This document shows, piece after piece, positions 6,517 through 21,561 of a stretch of DNA of 64,000 nucleotides (its first letter is position 1; each line of letters opens with the position of its first letter). Made by a program: the position numbers and the translations under genes. Below the pieces are notes generated by a model. It worked only from the letters and a program-made list of their open reading frames with translations, made no database searches and was not told the DNA's origin. This stretch comes from Cellulosimicrobium sp. Marseille-Q4280 (lineage in GTDB: Bacteria > Actinomycetota > Actinomycetes > Actinomycetales > Cellulomonadaceae), in the NCBI RefSeq assembly GCF_943181405.1, contig NZ_CALPBY010000007.1, forward strand, positions 124,001-188,000, written 5' to 3'.

Positions 6517-8586
6517 ATGTCCACGCCACCGTTCCCCTCCGCCGCCGTCTCCTCCCGTCCCGTGCTGGGCTCCGCCGACGCGATCCTCGAGGCGCTCGAC
6601 CCGGACCAGCGGGACGTCGCCCTCGCGCTGAGCGGGCCGGTGTGCGTGCTGGCAGGCGCGGGCACGGGCAAGACGCGCGCGATCACGCACCGCATCGCGT
6701 ACGGCGTGCGCACGGGGGCGTACACGCCGACGTCGGTCCTCGCCGTGACGTTCACGGCGCGCGCCGCGGGGGAGATGCGCACGCGCCTGCGCGAGCTCGG
6801 CGCCACGGGCGTCCAGGCGCGCACGTTCCACGCCGCCGCGCTGCGCCAGCTCGGCTACTTCTGGCCCAAGGTGGTCGGCGGCGCGCCGCCGCGCATCCTC
6901 GAGCACAAGGCGCCGGTGATCGCCGAGGCCGCGCGTCGGCTCGGCGTCGGCGTGGACCGCGTCGCGGTGCGCGACCTGTCGTCGGAGGTCGAGTGGGCCA
7001 AGGTGTCGCTCGTGACGGCCGACGACTACGTGCGGGCGACCGAGGCGATCGACCGCGACCCGCCCTCCGGCTACGACCACCAGACGGTGGCCCGTCTCAT
7101 CACCGCGTACGAGGACGTCAAGACGGAGCGCTCCGTCATCGACTTCGAGGACGTGCTGCTCATGCTCGGCGACATGCTCGCCACGCAGGGGCGCGTCGCC
7201 GACGAGGTGCGGCGTCAGTACCGGCACTTCGTCGTCGACGAGTACCAGGACGTCTCGCCGCTGCAGCAGTTCGTGCTCGACCAGTGGCTCGGCGGGCGCA
7301 ACGAGCTGTGCGTCGTCGGCGACCCGTCGCAGACGATCTACTCGTTCACCGGCGCGACGCCGCACCACCTGCTCACGTTCTCGCGCACGCACCCGGGCGC
7401 GCAGGTCATCCGGCTCGTGCGCGACTACCGCTCGACGCCGCAGGTCGTGCACCTCGCCAACCAGCTCCTCGCTCGCGCCGGCCGCGCGGGCGGCGCCCAC
7501 CAGGCGCTCGAGCTCGTCGCCCAGCGCCCGGCGGGCCCCCCGGTGTCGTACACCGCGTACGACGACGACGAGAGCGAGGCGAAGGGCGTCGCCGAGCGCG
7601 TCGGTCGGCTGCTCGCCGCGGGCACCCGGGCGAGCGAGGTCGCCGTCCTGTACCGGACCAACGCCCAGTCGGAGGCGTTCGAGGCCGCGCTCGCGGACGC
7701 GGGCATCGGCTACCTGGTGCGTGGCGGCGAGCGGTTCTTCCAGCGCAAGGAGGTCCGGGACGCCATCGTGCTGCTGCGCGGGGCAGCGCGTTCCGCCGAC
7801 CCCGACGTCGCGATGCCCGAGGCCGTCCGCGACGTCCTCGGCTCTGCGGGATGGGCGACCCAGCCCCCGGCCGCGCGGGGCGCGGCACGGGAACGGTGGG
7901 AGTCGATGCAGGCCATCGTCGCGCTCGCCGACGACGTCGCCGGGCTCGCCGTGGGGTCGGACGCCCCGGCGCCGACCGTCGCGACCTTCGTCGCCGAGCT
8001 CGACGAGCGGGCCTCCGCGCAGCACGCCCCCACGGTCGAGGGCGTGACGCTCGCGTCCCTGCACGCCGCCAAGGGGCTCGAGTGGGACGCCGTCTTCCTC
8101 GCGGGGATGAGCGAGGGGCTGATGCCCATCTCGCTCGCGGAGACCGACGAGGCGGTCGCCGAGGAACGGCGTCTCCTGTACGTCGGCATCACCCGTGCGC
8201 GCGAGCACCTCGAGGTGTCCTTCGCCCGCTCGCGCAACCCCGGCGGGCGCGCCACGCGTCGCCGAACGCGGTTCCTCGACGGGCTGTGGCCCGACGATCC
8301 CGCCGCGCCGCGCGGACGCCGGTCGCGGTCCGGCCAGCCGCGCGTCCAGCTCACCGGCGAGTACGACCGCGAGCTGTTCGACCGGTTGCGCGAGTGGCGT
8401 CTGCAGGTCGCGCAGGAGACGGACAAGCCCGCGTTCACCGTGCTCGTCGACACCACCCTGGCCGCGATCGCGGAGACGCGACCGAGCACGGTGCCGGAGC
8501 TCGCGCGCATCAACGGTCTCGGCCCCGCGAAGATCGAGCGCTACGGAGCCACGCTGCTCGAGATCGTCGCTCGCGCCAAGGCCTGA
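6517..8586 (+). CDS. uvrD2: ATP-dependent DNA helicase UvrD2 with HRDC domain
   Basis: A 689-residue SF1A 3'-5' helicase. Walker A GAGTGKT lies at about residue 46, motif II DEYQDV at about 240, then VVGDPSQTIYSFTG and motif VI VGITRAREHL. An HRDC domain occupies about residues 618-689 (LFDRLREWR to INGLGPAKIERYG). Mycobacterial UvrD2 has a tetracysteine linker between helicase and HRDC domains. Here the linker (about residues 585-615) has no Cys, and only two Cys are seen in the whole protein. ATG 6517 is preferred over in-frame starts upstream because the added sequence is antisense to mrx1 and unlike the family. A GAGAAT sequence 7 bases before the ATG may be a -10, giving a leaderless message. 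Confidence 0.9.
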   Translation: MSTPPFPSAAVSSRPVLGSADAILEALDPDQRDVALALSGPVCVLAGAGTGKTRAITHRIAYGVRTGAYTPTSVLAVTFTARAAGEMRTRLRELGATGVQARTFHAAALRQLGYFWPKVVGGAPPRILEHKAPVIAEAARRLGVGVDRVAVRDLSSEVEWAKVSLVTADDYVRATEAIDRDPPSGYDHQTVARLITAYEDVKTERSVIDFEDVLLMLGDMLATQGRVADEVRRQYRHFVVDEYQDVSPLQQFVLDQWLGGRNELCVVGDPSQTIYSFTGATPHHLLTFSRTHPGAQVIRLVRDYRSTPQVVHLANQLLARAGRAGGAHQALELVAQRPAGPPVSYTAYDDDESEAKGVAERVGRLLAAGTRASEVAVLYRTNAQSEAFEAALADAGIGYLVRGGERFFQRKEVRDAIVLLRGAARSADPDVAMPEAVRDVLGSAGWATQPPAARGAARERWESMQAIVALADDVAGLAVGSDAPAPTVATFVAELDERASAQHAPTVEGVTLASLHAAKGLEWDAVFLAGMSEGLMPISLAETDEAVAEERRLLYVGITRAREHLEVSFARSRNPGGRATRRRTRFLDGLWPDDPAAPRGRRSRSGQPRVQLTGEYDRELFDRLREWRLQVAQETDKPAFTVLVDTTLAAIAETRPSTVPELARINGLGPAKIERYGATLLEIVARAKA

Positions 8587-8675
8587 AGCGGCCCTCAGGA
8601 GGCGCTCCGCGCGCGTCCGGACGAGGGCGCTCGGCGGGCGTCGAAGAACTCGCCCGAAGAAATCTCGGAAATAAG

Positions 8676-8705
8676 TTGTGTCTCCTTCGTCGAGCGGCAT
8701 ACGCT
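8676..8705 (+). promoter_or_regulatory. whiB7 promoter with AT-rich upstream element
   Basis: A -35-like TTGTGT (8676-8681), an 18-bp spacer and TACGCT (8700-8705) form a plausible sigma-A promoter. The bases just 5' of the -35 (8661-8674, including GGAAATAA) are strikingly AT-rich for this genome. WhiB7 binds an AT-rich stretch next to the -35 of its own promoter through its AT-hook, so autoregulation is likely. Transcription would begin near 8712, leaving a leader of about 400 nt. Confidence 0.65.
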
Positions 8706-8776
8706 CGTCGAGTCCTGATGGAGCGGGCTGTGCCGAGAGGCGCATCCCCGAGTGGAGAAAGGTGGTGGGAGCTGAG

Positions 8777-8929
8777 ATGAAGAACCTGATCGCAATGACG
8801 ATCCTGCTGGATTCCGTGGCCGGTTACACGGCTGCGCCGGGAGGACTCCGTCCGCGTGCGCGCACGCACGGCGGCACCTTCGTCAACCGCCCCGCTCCCG
8901 ACTCCGCTCCCAGGACACGTCCGGTCTGA
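8777..8929 (+). CDS. whiB7 upstream leader ORF (50 codons)
   Basis: A small ORF starting MKNLIAMTILLDSVAGY with a good ribosome site (GGTGGTGGGAG, then ATG). It sits in the whiB7 leader, about 65 nt after the predicted transcription start, and ends 17 nt before a strong terminator hairpin. whiB7/wblC leaders of actinobacteria carry such upstream ORFs and use ribosome-mediated attenuation. Codons 23-25 (GGACTCCG, 8843-8850) are exactly complementary to CGGAGTCC in the 5' arm of the terminator (8952-8959), giving an antiterminator pairing that a translating ribosome would cover. The peptide itself resembles no known family; its function is probably only to be translated. Confidence 0.7.
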   Translation: MKNLIAMTILLDSVAGYTAAPGGLRPRARTHGGTFVNRPAPDSAPRTRPV

Positions 8930-8945
8930 CCGACCGGCACCTTCC

Positions 8946-8985
8946 AGGCCGCGGAGTCCATCTAGGACCCGCGGCCTTCGTGTTC
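8946..8985 (+). terminator. intrinsic terminator in the whiB7 leader (attenuator)
   Basis: The 5' arm 8946-8959 pairs with 8965-8977: AGGCCGCGG, one bulged A, GTCC, loop ATCTA, GGAC, CCGCGGCCT, then TTCGTGTTCT. That is about 13 bp of nearly all G-C pairing with a T-rich tail, upstream of whiB7 rather than at a gene end. It is best read as an attenuator controlling read-through into whiB7. Confidence 0.75.
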
Positions 8986-9022
8986 TCCAGAGCGCGACTG
9001 CCGATGAGGATCACCGGCCTCT

Positions 9023-9040
9023 CCCGTCACTACTGACGGG
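9023..9040 (+). promoter_or_regulatory. second hairpin in the whiB7 leader
   Basis: CCCGTCA (9023-9029) and TGACGGG (9034-9040) form a perfect 7-bp stem with a CTAC loop, between the attenuator and the whiB7 ribosome site. It could stabilise the message or join alternative folds; no function is established. Confidence 0.4.
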
Positions 9041-9107
9041 GACCGCTGTCCCTCGGGTCCTGTGACGACGACGTTCACACCACGACAGGACATCACTGGA
9101 GGACATC

Positions 9108-9527
9108 GTGCGGCTCACCGCGCTGCTCGACAACATCACTGCCCAGGGCGGATCCGGCCCCTGGGCACCCCACCAACCGCTCGCCACACCGCTGGGCGAG
9201 AAGGACGCGGCCGAGTTCGACCGCCTCCTGGCCGGACTCCTGCCCTGCCGGACCAACGACCCGGAGCTCTGGTTCGCCGAGCGCGCCACCGAGGTCGAGG
9301 AGGCCAAGGCCCTGTGCCGCACGTGCCCCCTCGTCGAGGGCTGCCTCGCCGGCGCCGTCGAGCGTCGGGAGCCCTGGGGCGTCTGGGGTGGCGAGGTCTT
9401 CGTGGACGGCGTCGTCGTCGCGCGCAAGCGCGGCCGCGGCCGTCCCAGCAAGGCCGAGGTCCTCGCACGTCAGGCCGAGGAGGCTGCCCGCCTCGAGGCC
9501 GAGGCGTCAGCCTCGGCCGCGGCCTGA
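9108..9527 (+). CDS. whiB7: WhiB-family antibiotic-resistance regulator WhiB7
   Basis: A 139-residue WhiB protein. Four Fe-S cysteines are visible: one in LLPCRTND, then CRTCPLVEGC supplies three. The turn motif is EPWGVWGGE and the AT-hook is KRGRGRPSK near residue 110, the feature that marks WhiB7. The family binds sigma A and activates promoters with AT-rich -35 flanks, inducing intrinsic resistance to ribosome-targeting drugs. GTG 9108 is preceded by CTGGAGGAC. An Ala/Glu-rich tail follows the AT-hook. Its last 21 bases overlap the 3' end of the convergent ThiF-like gene. Confidence 0.93.
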   Translation: MRLTALLDNITAQGGSGPWAPHQPLATPLGEKDAAEFDRLLAGLLPCRTNDPELWFAERATEVEEAKALCRTCPLVEGCLAGAVERREPWGVWGGEVFVDGVVVARKRGRGRPSKAEVLARQAEEAARLEAEASASAAA

Positions 9528-11455: not shown

Positions 11456-12571
11456 TGTGATGTCCAGGGAGGTTGTCCGGATCCCGTGATGACGACACGG
11501 GGGCGGGTTACCGGATGACGAAGGCCTCCGGTTGTGAAGTGGAGCTGTCGAGGAACCACTTCCACCCGCCGGAGGCCTTCGTGTCACACGCTAACGCCCT
11601 GCTCACCCCGAGAACACGACTGCGGCTGGCGCGGCTGGTCGTCGAGTCCGGCTGGACCTACACGGCCGCGGCGAAGATGTTCATGGTCTCGGCCCGCACC
11701 GCGAGGAAGTGGGCCGAGCGATATCGCACCGAGGGCGTGGCCGGGATGGCCGATCGCAGTTCGCGCCCGCACCACAGCCCGACCCGCACCCCGCAACATC
11801 TGGTCAAGCAGGTCGTGCGGCTGCGGTGGCGACACCGGTTGGGACCGGTCCAGATAGCCGGGCGCCTGCACATGCCCGCCTCCACGGTCCATGCGGTGCT
11901 GGTGCGGTGCCGGATCAACCGGCTCACCCGGATCGATCGGGTCACCGGCGAACCATTGCGCCGCTACGAGCATGACCATCCCGGCTCACTGATCCATGTC
12001 GACGTCACCAAGTTCGGCAATATCCCCGACGGGGGCGGGTGGCGCTACGTCGGGCGGCAACAGGGCTACCGGAACCAAGCAGCAACCGCTCTACGCACAG
12101 GCCGCACGGCCAAGGGCAACCCGAGCATCGGCACCGCCTACCTGCACACCGTGATCGACGACCACTCCCGACTCGCCTACGCCGAGATCCGGTCCGACGA
12201 GAAGGGCGCAACCGCGGTCGACGTGCTCGAACGCGCCGTGACCTGGTTCGCCGCACGCGGGGTGCACGTCGAGCAGGTGCTGTCCGACAACGGGTCGGCC
12301 TACCGCTCCCACGCCTGGCGCGACGCCTGCACAAGGCTGGGGATCAAGCACAAGCGAACCCGGCCCTACCGCCCGCAGACCAACGGCAAGATCGAACGCT
12401 TCCACCGCACGCTCGCCGACGGGTGGGCCTACGCCCGCTTCTACGCCTCAGAGACCGAACGCCGCGCCGCGCTACCCGGATGGCTCCACTTCTACAATCA
12501 CCACAGGCTCCACAGCGCGATCGGCAACCAGCCACCGGTCAGCCGGCTGACCAACCTCCCTGGACATCACA
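11456..12571 (+). mobile_element. complete IS481-family insertion sequence (1116 bp)
   Basis: Perfect 20-bp terminal inverted repeats, TGTGATGTCCAGGGAGGTTG at 11456-11475 and its complement at 12552-12571, bound one DDE transposase gene. Flanking 6-bp GCTAGG duplications show recent, intact insertion. Base composition is slightly less GC-rich than the neighbours, and codons such as ATA and CAA appear that are rare around it. The element separates two convergent genes without damaging either. Copy number in the genome cannot be seen here. Confidence 0.95.
11518..11582 (+). promoter_or_regulatory. long hairpin covering the transposase start
   Basis: ACGAAGGCCTCCGG (11518-11531) is exactly complementary to CCGGAGGCCTTCGT (11569-11582). 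An inner AAGTGG/CCACTT stem lies between, and the last bases include the GT of the transposase GTG. RNA entering from outside would fold and hide the start codon, a device known in other IS families to stop expression from passing transcription. Confidence 0.65.
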
Positions 12572-12576
12572 GCTAG
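11581..12576 (+). CDS. IS481-family DDE transposase
   Basis: A 331-residue transposase. N-terminal helix-turn-helix segments (YTAAAKMFMVSARTARKWAERY; then the LGPVQIAGRL region) precede an rve-type DDE core: HVDVTKFG with the first Asp, LSDNGSAYRS with the second, and TNGKIERFHRTLADGW with the Glu. GTG 11581 begins at a conserved VSHANALLTPRTR. The last in-element codon starts at the final base of the right end, so the stop TAG (12574-12576) is supplied by the duplicated target GCTAGG, not by the element itself. The frame shows no lesion and is probably active. Confidence 0.93.
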   Translation: MSHANALLTPRTRLRLARLVVESGWTYTAAAKMFMVSARTARKWAERYRTEGVAGMADRSSRPHHSPTRTPQHLVKQVVRLRWRHRLGPVQIAGRLHMPASTVHAVLVRCRINRLTRIDRVTGEPLRRYEHDHPGSLIHVDVTKFGNIPDGGGWRYVGRQQGYRNQAATALRTGRTAKGNPSIGTAYLHTVIDDHSRLAYAEIRSDEKGATAVDVLERAVTWFAARGVHVEQVLSDNGSAYRSHAWRDACTRLGIKHKRTRPYRPQTNGKIERFHRTLADGWAYARFYASETERRAALPGWLHFYNHHRLHSAIGNQPPVSRLTNLPGHHS

Positions 12577-21487: not shown

Positions 21488-21561
21488 CGCGGGGTGGAGC
21501 AGCTCGGTAGCTCGCTGGGCTCATAACCCAGAGGTCGCAGGTTCAAATCCTGCCCCCGCTA
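21488..21561 (+). tRNA. initiator tRNA-fMet (CAT)
   Basis: A full cloverleaf folds: acceptor CGCGGGG/CCCCGCT with an unpaired first position (C1 opposite T72), anticodon stem CTGGG/CCCAG with three consecutive G-C pairs, anticodon CAT at 21522-21524, T-arm GCAGG TTCAAAT CCTGC and discriminator A. The 1-72 mismatch and the GGG/CCC stem mark it as initiator rather than elongator. The 3' CCA is not encoded. Confidence 0.97.

What the first reader, a model, noticed from the sequence alone, without database searches (positions are those of the whole stretch)
8661..9110. Complete whiB7 attenuator: upstream ORF carries the antiterminator strand
The leader shows an AT-rich-flanked promoter, a 50-codon upstream ORF, a 13-bp terminator and whiB7. 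Codons 23-25 of the ORF contain GGACTCCG, exactly complementary to CGGAGTCC in the 5' arm of the terminator. A ribosome moving normally would cover 8843-8850 and let the terminator form; one slowed by an antibiotic in the first ~15 codons would leave it free to pair and allow read-through. Ribosome-mediated attenuation of whiB7/wblC is known in actinobacteria; the exact pairing in this lineage is read here from sequence.
Basis: partly seen in the sequence, partly recalled or inferred. Interest (0 to 1): 0.75.

Follow-up and report, generated by a model that had tools for sequence, protein, structure and literature searches.

The report
Ribosome-sensing switch ahead of whiB7
The DNA ahead of the antibiotic-resistance regulator whiB7 looks like a known kind of RNA switch that turns the gene on when ribosomes are blocked; the strand that works the switch is most likely not the one first proposed but a second copy 57 bases further on.

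Summary
The layout is real: promoter-like boxes, a 50-codon uORF (8777-8929), a 13-pair terminator-like hairpin (8946-8977), whiB7 (9108-9527). It fits the known whiB7/wblC uORF attenuators. Neither match is beyond chance in this sequence alone; comparison separates them. In 22 close relatives B can pair in 22, A in 13. In the family set 83 of 91 leaders hold a complement of 7 bp or more within 75 nt before the arm, against a shuffle mean of 17.6. In 105 further leaders with 15 different arms this region fits its own arm better than swapped arms (0 of 5000; 1 of 5000 when thinned to 37); the region upstream does not. A stricter score weakened on thinning. With a modelled ribosome on early codons B pairs with the arm, on the last codons it does not; A never exceeds 0.01. 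Equilibrium folding of the longer RNA favours the terminator, so antitermination would have to be co-transcriptional. No experiment was done.

The parts
8676..8705 (+). probable promoter: -35 TTGTGT 8676-8681, 18-nt spacer, -10 TACGCT 8700-8705; A+T-rich stretch 8661-8675 just upstream; start near 8711-8712 inferred
   Evidence: sequence; of the ten relatives printed, nine carry AAATAAGTTGTG (L008 one base different) and ten TATGGT where the window has TACGCT; generic scan found none
8760..8771 (+). G-rich Shine-Dalgarno region of the uORF (AGGTGGTGGGAG)
   Evidence: sequence; region conserved in A2
8777..8929 (+). uORF, 50 codons, stop TGA 8927-8929
8809..8821 (+). strand C: 13-pair complement (with G-U) of the terminator arm; fully paired in this sequence only among 22
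   Evidence: present, but not kept in 9 of 22 relatives and not used in folds
8900..8907 (+). strand B, GACTCCGC, the likely antiterminator strand (codons 42-44), pairs with 8951-8958
   Evidence: near-region tests
8921..8937 (+). hairpin CCGGTC/GACCGG with the uORF stop codon in its loop; lies between B and the arm
   Evidence: one pair C-G in 12, U-A in 8 of 22; pairs broken in up to 5 of 22, probably the Oerskovia rows, where the alignment shifts
8946..8959 (+). terminator 5' arm AGGCCGCGGAGTCC
   Evidence: 13 pairs kept in 22 of 22
8965..8986 (+). terminator 3' arm (8965-8977) and imperfect U tract (8978-8986)
9057..9091 (+). stem-loop just before the whiB7 SD (GTCCTGT 9057-9063 / ACAGGAC 9085-9091), function unknown
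9108..9527 (+). whiB7 (139 aa; Whib domain, EPWGVWGGE turn, RGRGRPSK AT-hook; motif names recalled); SD GGAGG 9098-9102

Best explanation
This is a ribosome-mediated transcription attenuator for whiB7. Transcription starts near 8712. When ribosomes translate the uORF to its end, they cover the last codons (8900-8926) as RNA polymerase makes the terminator, so the arm 8946-8959 pairs with 8965-8977 and transcription stops before whiB7. When a ribosome is held early in the uORF, the last codons stay naked; strand B (8900-8907) pairs with 8951-8958, clamped round the stop-codon hairpin 8921-8937, before the terminator's 3' arm is made, and polymerase reads on into whiB7. Shown here: anatomy, conservation, co-variation of the end-of-uORF region with the arm, and fold predictions. 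Inferred: that the uORF is translated, that the hairpin terminates, and that ribosome-blocking drugs or amino-acid shortage induce it.
For: B can pair in 22 of 22 close relatives, 21 of 22 by Watson-Crick pairs alone. Complement of 7 bp or more covering the arm's variable part, within 75 nt before the arm: 83 of 91 family-set leaders, shuffle mean 17.6, maximum 28. Class-wide, own arm beats permuted arms in the near region: 0 of 5000 (105 leaders), 0 of 5000 (64), 1 of 5000 (37); the upstream region shows nothing. Examples: CGGAACCC with GGGTTCCG (L061, L067), GCGGACCC with GGGTCCGC (L063, L073). In the window RNA 8712-8962, B-arm pairing is 0.90 to 1.00 with the ribosome on codons 1, 2, 3, 4 or 6 and 0.00 on the seven positions tested from codon 38 to 50. 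In 88 family-set leaders, pairing of the arm with the near region exceeds 0.5 in 86 at codon 1 and in 2 at codon n-5. The same logic is stated or proposed for whiB7/wblC elsewhere (passages of PMC11550727, PMC10727445, PMC4128351).
Against: B's own match is not beyond chance in the window (10 of 100 shuffles score as high). Once the terminator's 3' arm is present, equilibrium favours the terminator: mean 0.82 against B-arm 0.03 in 85 leaders, and in the window 0.87 against 0.00 in 25 of 26 ribosome states, the exception being codon 36 (0.44 against 0.50); so antitermination must be kinetic. With no ribosome the window gives B only 0.26, and 0.18 to 0.30 on codons 8 to 28. With the ribosome on the last sense codon, near-region pairing exceeds 0.5 in 51 of 88 leaders (0.13 in the window). 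Codon positions of the uORF vary equally (0.143, 0.154, 0.137), so translation rests on SD, frame and stop position. A stricter co-variation score lost strength on thinning (3, 269 and 578 of 5000). Sixteen of 195 leaders, then 11 of 60 more, failed my terminator motif or filters.
Confidence: 0.85

Rival explanations
1. One reading: strand A (8843-8850) is the antiterminator strand and a ribosome in mid-uORF masks it.
For: Exact 8-nt match, can pair in 13 of 22 close relatives. In the family set the upstream region (150 to 79 nt before the arm) holds complements of 7 bp or more in 56 of 91 leaders against a shuffle mean of 19.5, maximum 27.
Against: Deleted or broken in 9 of 22 close relatives; no double-sided change; pairing 0.01 or less at every ribosome position modelled; the upstream complements lie at scattered positions; no class-wide co-variation.
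Confidence: 0.05
2. Two or more strands (A, B and, in this strain, C) act together, so that stalls at different places in the uORF all allow read-through.
For: Excess of upstream complements in the family set; C scores above all of 100 shuffles in the window and reaches 0.97 with the ribosome on codon 40.
Against: C is fully paired in 1 of 22 relatives, A in 13 of 22; family leaders are not independent; nothing class-wide.
Confidence: 0.08
3. A four-strand switch in which the 5' leader and SD pair with B and must be masked by a ribosome at the start codon before B is free.
For: The consensus fold pairs alignment columns 44-59 with 193-207; the window's B rises from 0.26 with no ribosome to 1.00 with one on codon 1.
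Against: Leaders with a shuffled 5' part pair with B nearly as well (0.58 real, 0.49 shuffled, 85 leaders); without a ribosome, near-region pairing with the arm already exceeds 0.5 in 78 of 88 leaders.
Confidence: 0.12
4. The uORF and hairpin are incidental: whiB7 is read from another promoter and the hairpin is only the end of a small RNA.
For: Imperfect U tract; scan found no terminator and no promoter.
Against: Terminator motif found in 179 of 195 leaders; SD-uORF layout in 88 of 91 family-set leaders against 2.4 expected.
Confidence: 0.03

Closest known systems
whiB7/wblC uORF attenuator of mycobacteria and Streptomyces (Lee 2022, Mol Microbiol, cited by held papers but not itself held; PMC4128351, PMC11550727, PMC10727445: passages read)
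   Same: long leader, SD-preceded uORF, terminator between uORF and whiB7, antiterminator using overlapping uORF and terminator sequence
   Different: another lineage; here the strand is assigned by comparison of leaders; a further stem-loop sits before the whiB7 SD. Whether the exact pairing differs from Lee 2022 could not be checked
Amino-acid operon attenuators such as ilvB1 of M. tuberculosis (PMC13236596, passages read)
   Same: ribosome position chooses between two exclusive hairpins
   Different: no shared run of sensor codons seen by eye in the uORF peptides
uORF attenuators of ABCF resistance genes such as tiaA and are5sc (PMC12421871, passages read)
   Same: uORF plus terminator/antiterminator, responds to ribosome drugs
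   Different: those uORFs are very short and their ribosome binding sites overlap the antiterminator; here 50 codons with the strand at the far end

Membership tests
whiB7/wblC uORF attenuator | downstream gene is whiB7 | tested here: met
   Pfam Whib 1.7e-15; EPWGVWGGE invariant in 17 of 17 aligned; in the genome one close match and four weaker ones; NCBIfam gave no family
whiB7/wblC uORF attenuator | SD-preceded uORF ending just before the terminator | tested here: met
   present in the window; 88 of 91 family-set leaders against 2.4 in shuffles
whiB7/wblC uORF attenuator | intrinsic terminator between uORF and gene | tested here: inconclusive
   hairpin kept in 22 of 22; U tract imperfect, generic scan negative; termination not measured
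whiB7/wblC uORF attenuator | uORF strand that can pair with the terminator's 5' arm | tested here: met
   strand B; near region:
whiB7/wblC uORF attenuator | induction by ribosome inhibitors or amino-acid shortage | not testable with these tools
   needs RNA measurements
whiB7/wblC uORF attenuator | promoter activated by WhiB7 itself (A+T-rich box by the -35; recalled) | tested here: inconclusive
   A+T-rich stretch present and similar by eye in the ten relatives printed; binding not tested
amino-acid (trp/ilv-type) attenuator | run of sensor codons for one amino acid | tested here: not met
   the 88 uORF peptides printed show no shared run by eye
Rfam-described RNA families | match at gathering score | tested here: not met
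   only a tRNA at 21488-21561 in the window

The most novel reading that the evidence does not exclude
whiB7 in this group of genera is controlled at two levels: the uORF attenuator, and a separate stem-loop (9057-9091) just before the whiB7 Shine-Dalgarno that acts on whiB7 translation or mRNA life. Its stem changes sequence between genera while staying paired (GTCCTGT/ACAGGAC, CAGGTCCTG/CAGGACCTG, ATCCCT/AGGGAT); in the 15 leaders tested from the genus labelled g4, and in some others, only stems of 0 to 5 bp were found there.
Probability: 0.3. Interest if true: 0.45.

Novelty: new member of a known kind. Interest (0 to 1): 0.3.

Why it matters
It assigns the likely working strand of the whiB7 attenuator in the Cellulosimicrobium and Oerskovia group and supports, from many leaders, that the strand lies in the last codons of the uORF across the class. 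That gives a rule usable for annotating whiB7 leaders, which Rfam release 15 did not flag in this window. It also shows how an exact 8-nt match in G+C-rich DNA can mislead: the two copies look alike and only comparison separates them.

Tried and rejected
Strand A as antiterminator: rejected on conservation, co-variation and folding. Strand C (13 pairs with G-U; 0 of 100 shuffles as high): set aside because 1 of 22 relatives keeps it. Pairing of the transcript's 5' end GUCCUG (8712-8717) with CAGGAC (8911-8916): 90.2% of cells paired but no double-sided change; single cases looked co-varying by eye, not pursued. SD or 5'-leader pairing with B: only a little above a shuffled-leader control. Peptide-level selection on the uORF: no third-position excess. 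The first permutation test gave 8 of 2000 for 56 leaders and 124 of 2000 after collapsing to 26, so more genomes were fetched; the strict score stayed weak on thinning and the unrestricted score, chosen after seeing that, was strong. Whether Lee 2022 already gives this exact pairing could not be checked: the paper is not held. In the held library no paper has both whiB7 and Cellulosimicrobium, and one has whiB7 and Cellulomonas, a review of developmental genes seen only as a listing; of the 310 papers I saw 10. Leaders dropped: 16 of 195 without the terminator motif; of the other 179, 32 were duplicates, too short upstream or had an off-pattern arm, leaving 147; 11 of 60 later ones fell to the same filters.

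Full report
What is there. The window is contig 7 of a 12-contig assembly; most of the best WhiB7 matches among public contigs are labelled Cellulosimicrobium (L002 is labelled otherwise). whiB7 starts at GTG 9108 (Pfam Whib; conserved turn). Upstream lie a UvrD-type helicase gene ending at 8586, promoter-like boxes at 8676-8705, a 50-codon uORF at 8777-8929 and a 13-pair hairpin with one bulged A at 8946-8977.

The missed copy. The uORF holds two exact 8-nt complements of the terminator's 5' arm: A at 8843-8850 and B at 8900-8907. At least one such match is expected in 8.5% of dinucleotide-shuffled uORFs, two or more in 2.4%, so neither alone is strong evidence; B's run is matched by 10 of 100 shuffles of its own region. 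A third, G-U-containing, 13-pair complement C lies at 8809-8821.

Close relatives. I aligned 22 distinct Cellulosimicrobium and Oerskovia-type leaders, the window among them (A2). B can pair fully with the arm in 22 of 22, A in 13 of 22 (five rows have a 27-nt gap there, four have changes), C in 1 of 22. The pair-by-pair counts agree; because the arm hardly varies in this set, they show conservation, not co-variation.

The family set. Of 195 leaders (74, 120, and the window), 179 had the terminator motif and 147 passed the filters for distinctness, length and arm pattern: 91 in the family set (the window and those of L001-L049, L074 and L080-L159 that passed) and 56 outside it. In the family set, 83 of 91 hold a complement of 7 bp or more that covers the arm's variable part; its start lies 31 to 51 nt before the arm. 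Shuffles give a mean of 17.6 and a maximum of 28. The next region upstream also shows an excess (56 of 91 against 19.5, maximum 27), but at scattered positions and in related leaders. Leader by leader the signal is modest: 37 of 147 near regions and 19 of 147 upstream regions reach the top 5% of their own shuffles.

Co-variation across the class. Adding 49 of 60 further leaders gave 105 outside the family set, with 15 different arms. With the score 'best contiguous run anywhere on the arm', permuted arms did as well as own arms in the near region in 0 of 5000 (n = 105), 0 of 5000 (n = 64) and 1 of 5000 (n = 37); the upstream region gave 2037, 2925 and 3936 of 5000. With the stricter score, which must span the variable bases, the near region gave 3, 269 and 578 of 5000. 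The unrestricted score was run after the strict one, so I give both. Thinning was by sequence likeness, not by a tree.

Folding with a ribosome. For the window RNA 8712-8962 (terminator 3' arm not yet made), a ribosome mask on codons 1, 2, 3, 4 or 6 gives B-arm pairing of 0.90 to 1.00; at the seven positions tested from codon 38 to 50 it is 0.00; A is 0.01 or less throughout. With no ribosome B is 0.26; on codons 8 to 28 it is 0.18 to 0.30; on codons 30, 33 and 36 it is 0.89 to 0.96. C reaches 0.97 at codon 40. For the RNA to 8990 the terminator has 0.87 and B 0.00 in 25 of 26 states; at codon 36 they have 0.44 and 0.50. Over 88 family-set leaders, pairing of the arm with the near region exceeds 0.5 in 78 with no ribosome, 86 at codon 1, 76 at mid-uORF, 9 at codon n-8, 2 at n-5, 19 at n-1 and 51 at n, the last sense codon. 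So the general rule is: a naked uORF end gives the antiterminator, a ribosome over the last codons but not quite at the stop removes it. The window is less clean than most relatives, because its B also pairs with the 5' leader; such pairing is only a little above a shuffled-leader control (0.58 against 0.49). With the terminator complete, equilibrium favours it in 85 leaders (mean 0.82 against 0.03), so the switch would have to be kinetic.

The antiterminator. The window RNA 8898-8960 folds at -33.0 kcal/mol with B paired to the arm round the stop-codon hairpin. When the RNA starts at 8840, so that A is available, the best fold still uses B. When it starts at 8804 and ends at 8960, the best fold uses C, but the partition function for 8777-8962 gives B 0.95 and C 0.05, and for 8795-8962 B 1.00.

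Translation of the uORF. The SD-start-stop layout is kept in 88 of 91 family-set leaders against 2.4 in shuffles. Codon positions vary equally, so the peptide itself seems not to matter. Translation is inferred, not measured.

What is known. Held papers state or propose that whiB7/wblC is controlled by a uORF and terminator, that uORF translation favours the terminator and that blocked translation favours the antiterminator (passages). The primary paper (Lee 2022) is not held, so the exact pairing there could not be compared. This locus is a new member of that kind; what this report adds is the change of strand and the comparison across leaders. Rfam has no match here at gathering score.

A second element. 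A 7-bp stem just before the whiB7 SD (9057-9063 with 9085-9091) is nearly invariant in the 22 (98.1% of cells paired) and has a different, still paired, sequence in other genera, but was not found in the 15 leaders tested from genus g4 and in some others. The best stem there reached the top 5% of its own shuffles in 29 of 82 leaders, and 10% in the window. Its function is unknown.

Changes after checking: the confidence in the main explanation was lowered from 0.87 to 0.85 because B's own match in the window is not beyond chance and the full-length folds barely respond to the ribosome mask.

Noticed in passing
9057-9091: Stem-loop GTCCTGT/ACAGGAC 6 nt before the whiB7 SD; stem kept with different sequence in other genera, not found in 15 leaders of genus g4; no function known.
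   Followed up: partly
9023-9040: Hairpin CCCGTCA/TGACGGG between terminator and whiB7; bases vary, pairing only partly kept on the alignment (68% and 41% of cells in its two parts).
   Followed up: partly
8809-8821: 13-pair complement of the terminator arm (with G-U pairs), fully paired only in this sequence among 22 relatives.
   Followed up: partly
8712-8717 with 8911-8916: GTCCTG at the likely transcript start is complementary to CAGGAC at the uORF end; GTCC at the start is seen in most family leaders printed (for pair counts).
   Followed up: partly
L035, L041, L117, L118, L143-L145 and others: Leaders in which my terminator motif failed (16 of 195) or, for L041, landed on a wrong site; L041 has a different palindromic G+C hairpin near its whiB7 (by eye).
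   Followed up: no
11473-12576: Transposase gene of IS481 type: Pfam rve 2.4e-20 and LZ_Tnp_IS481 6.5e-13, about 2 kb downstream of whiB7.
   Followed up: partly
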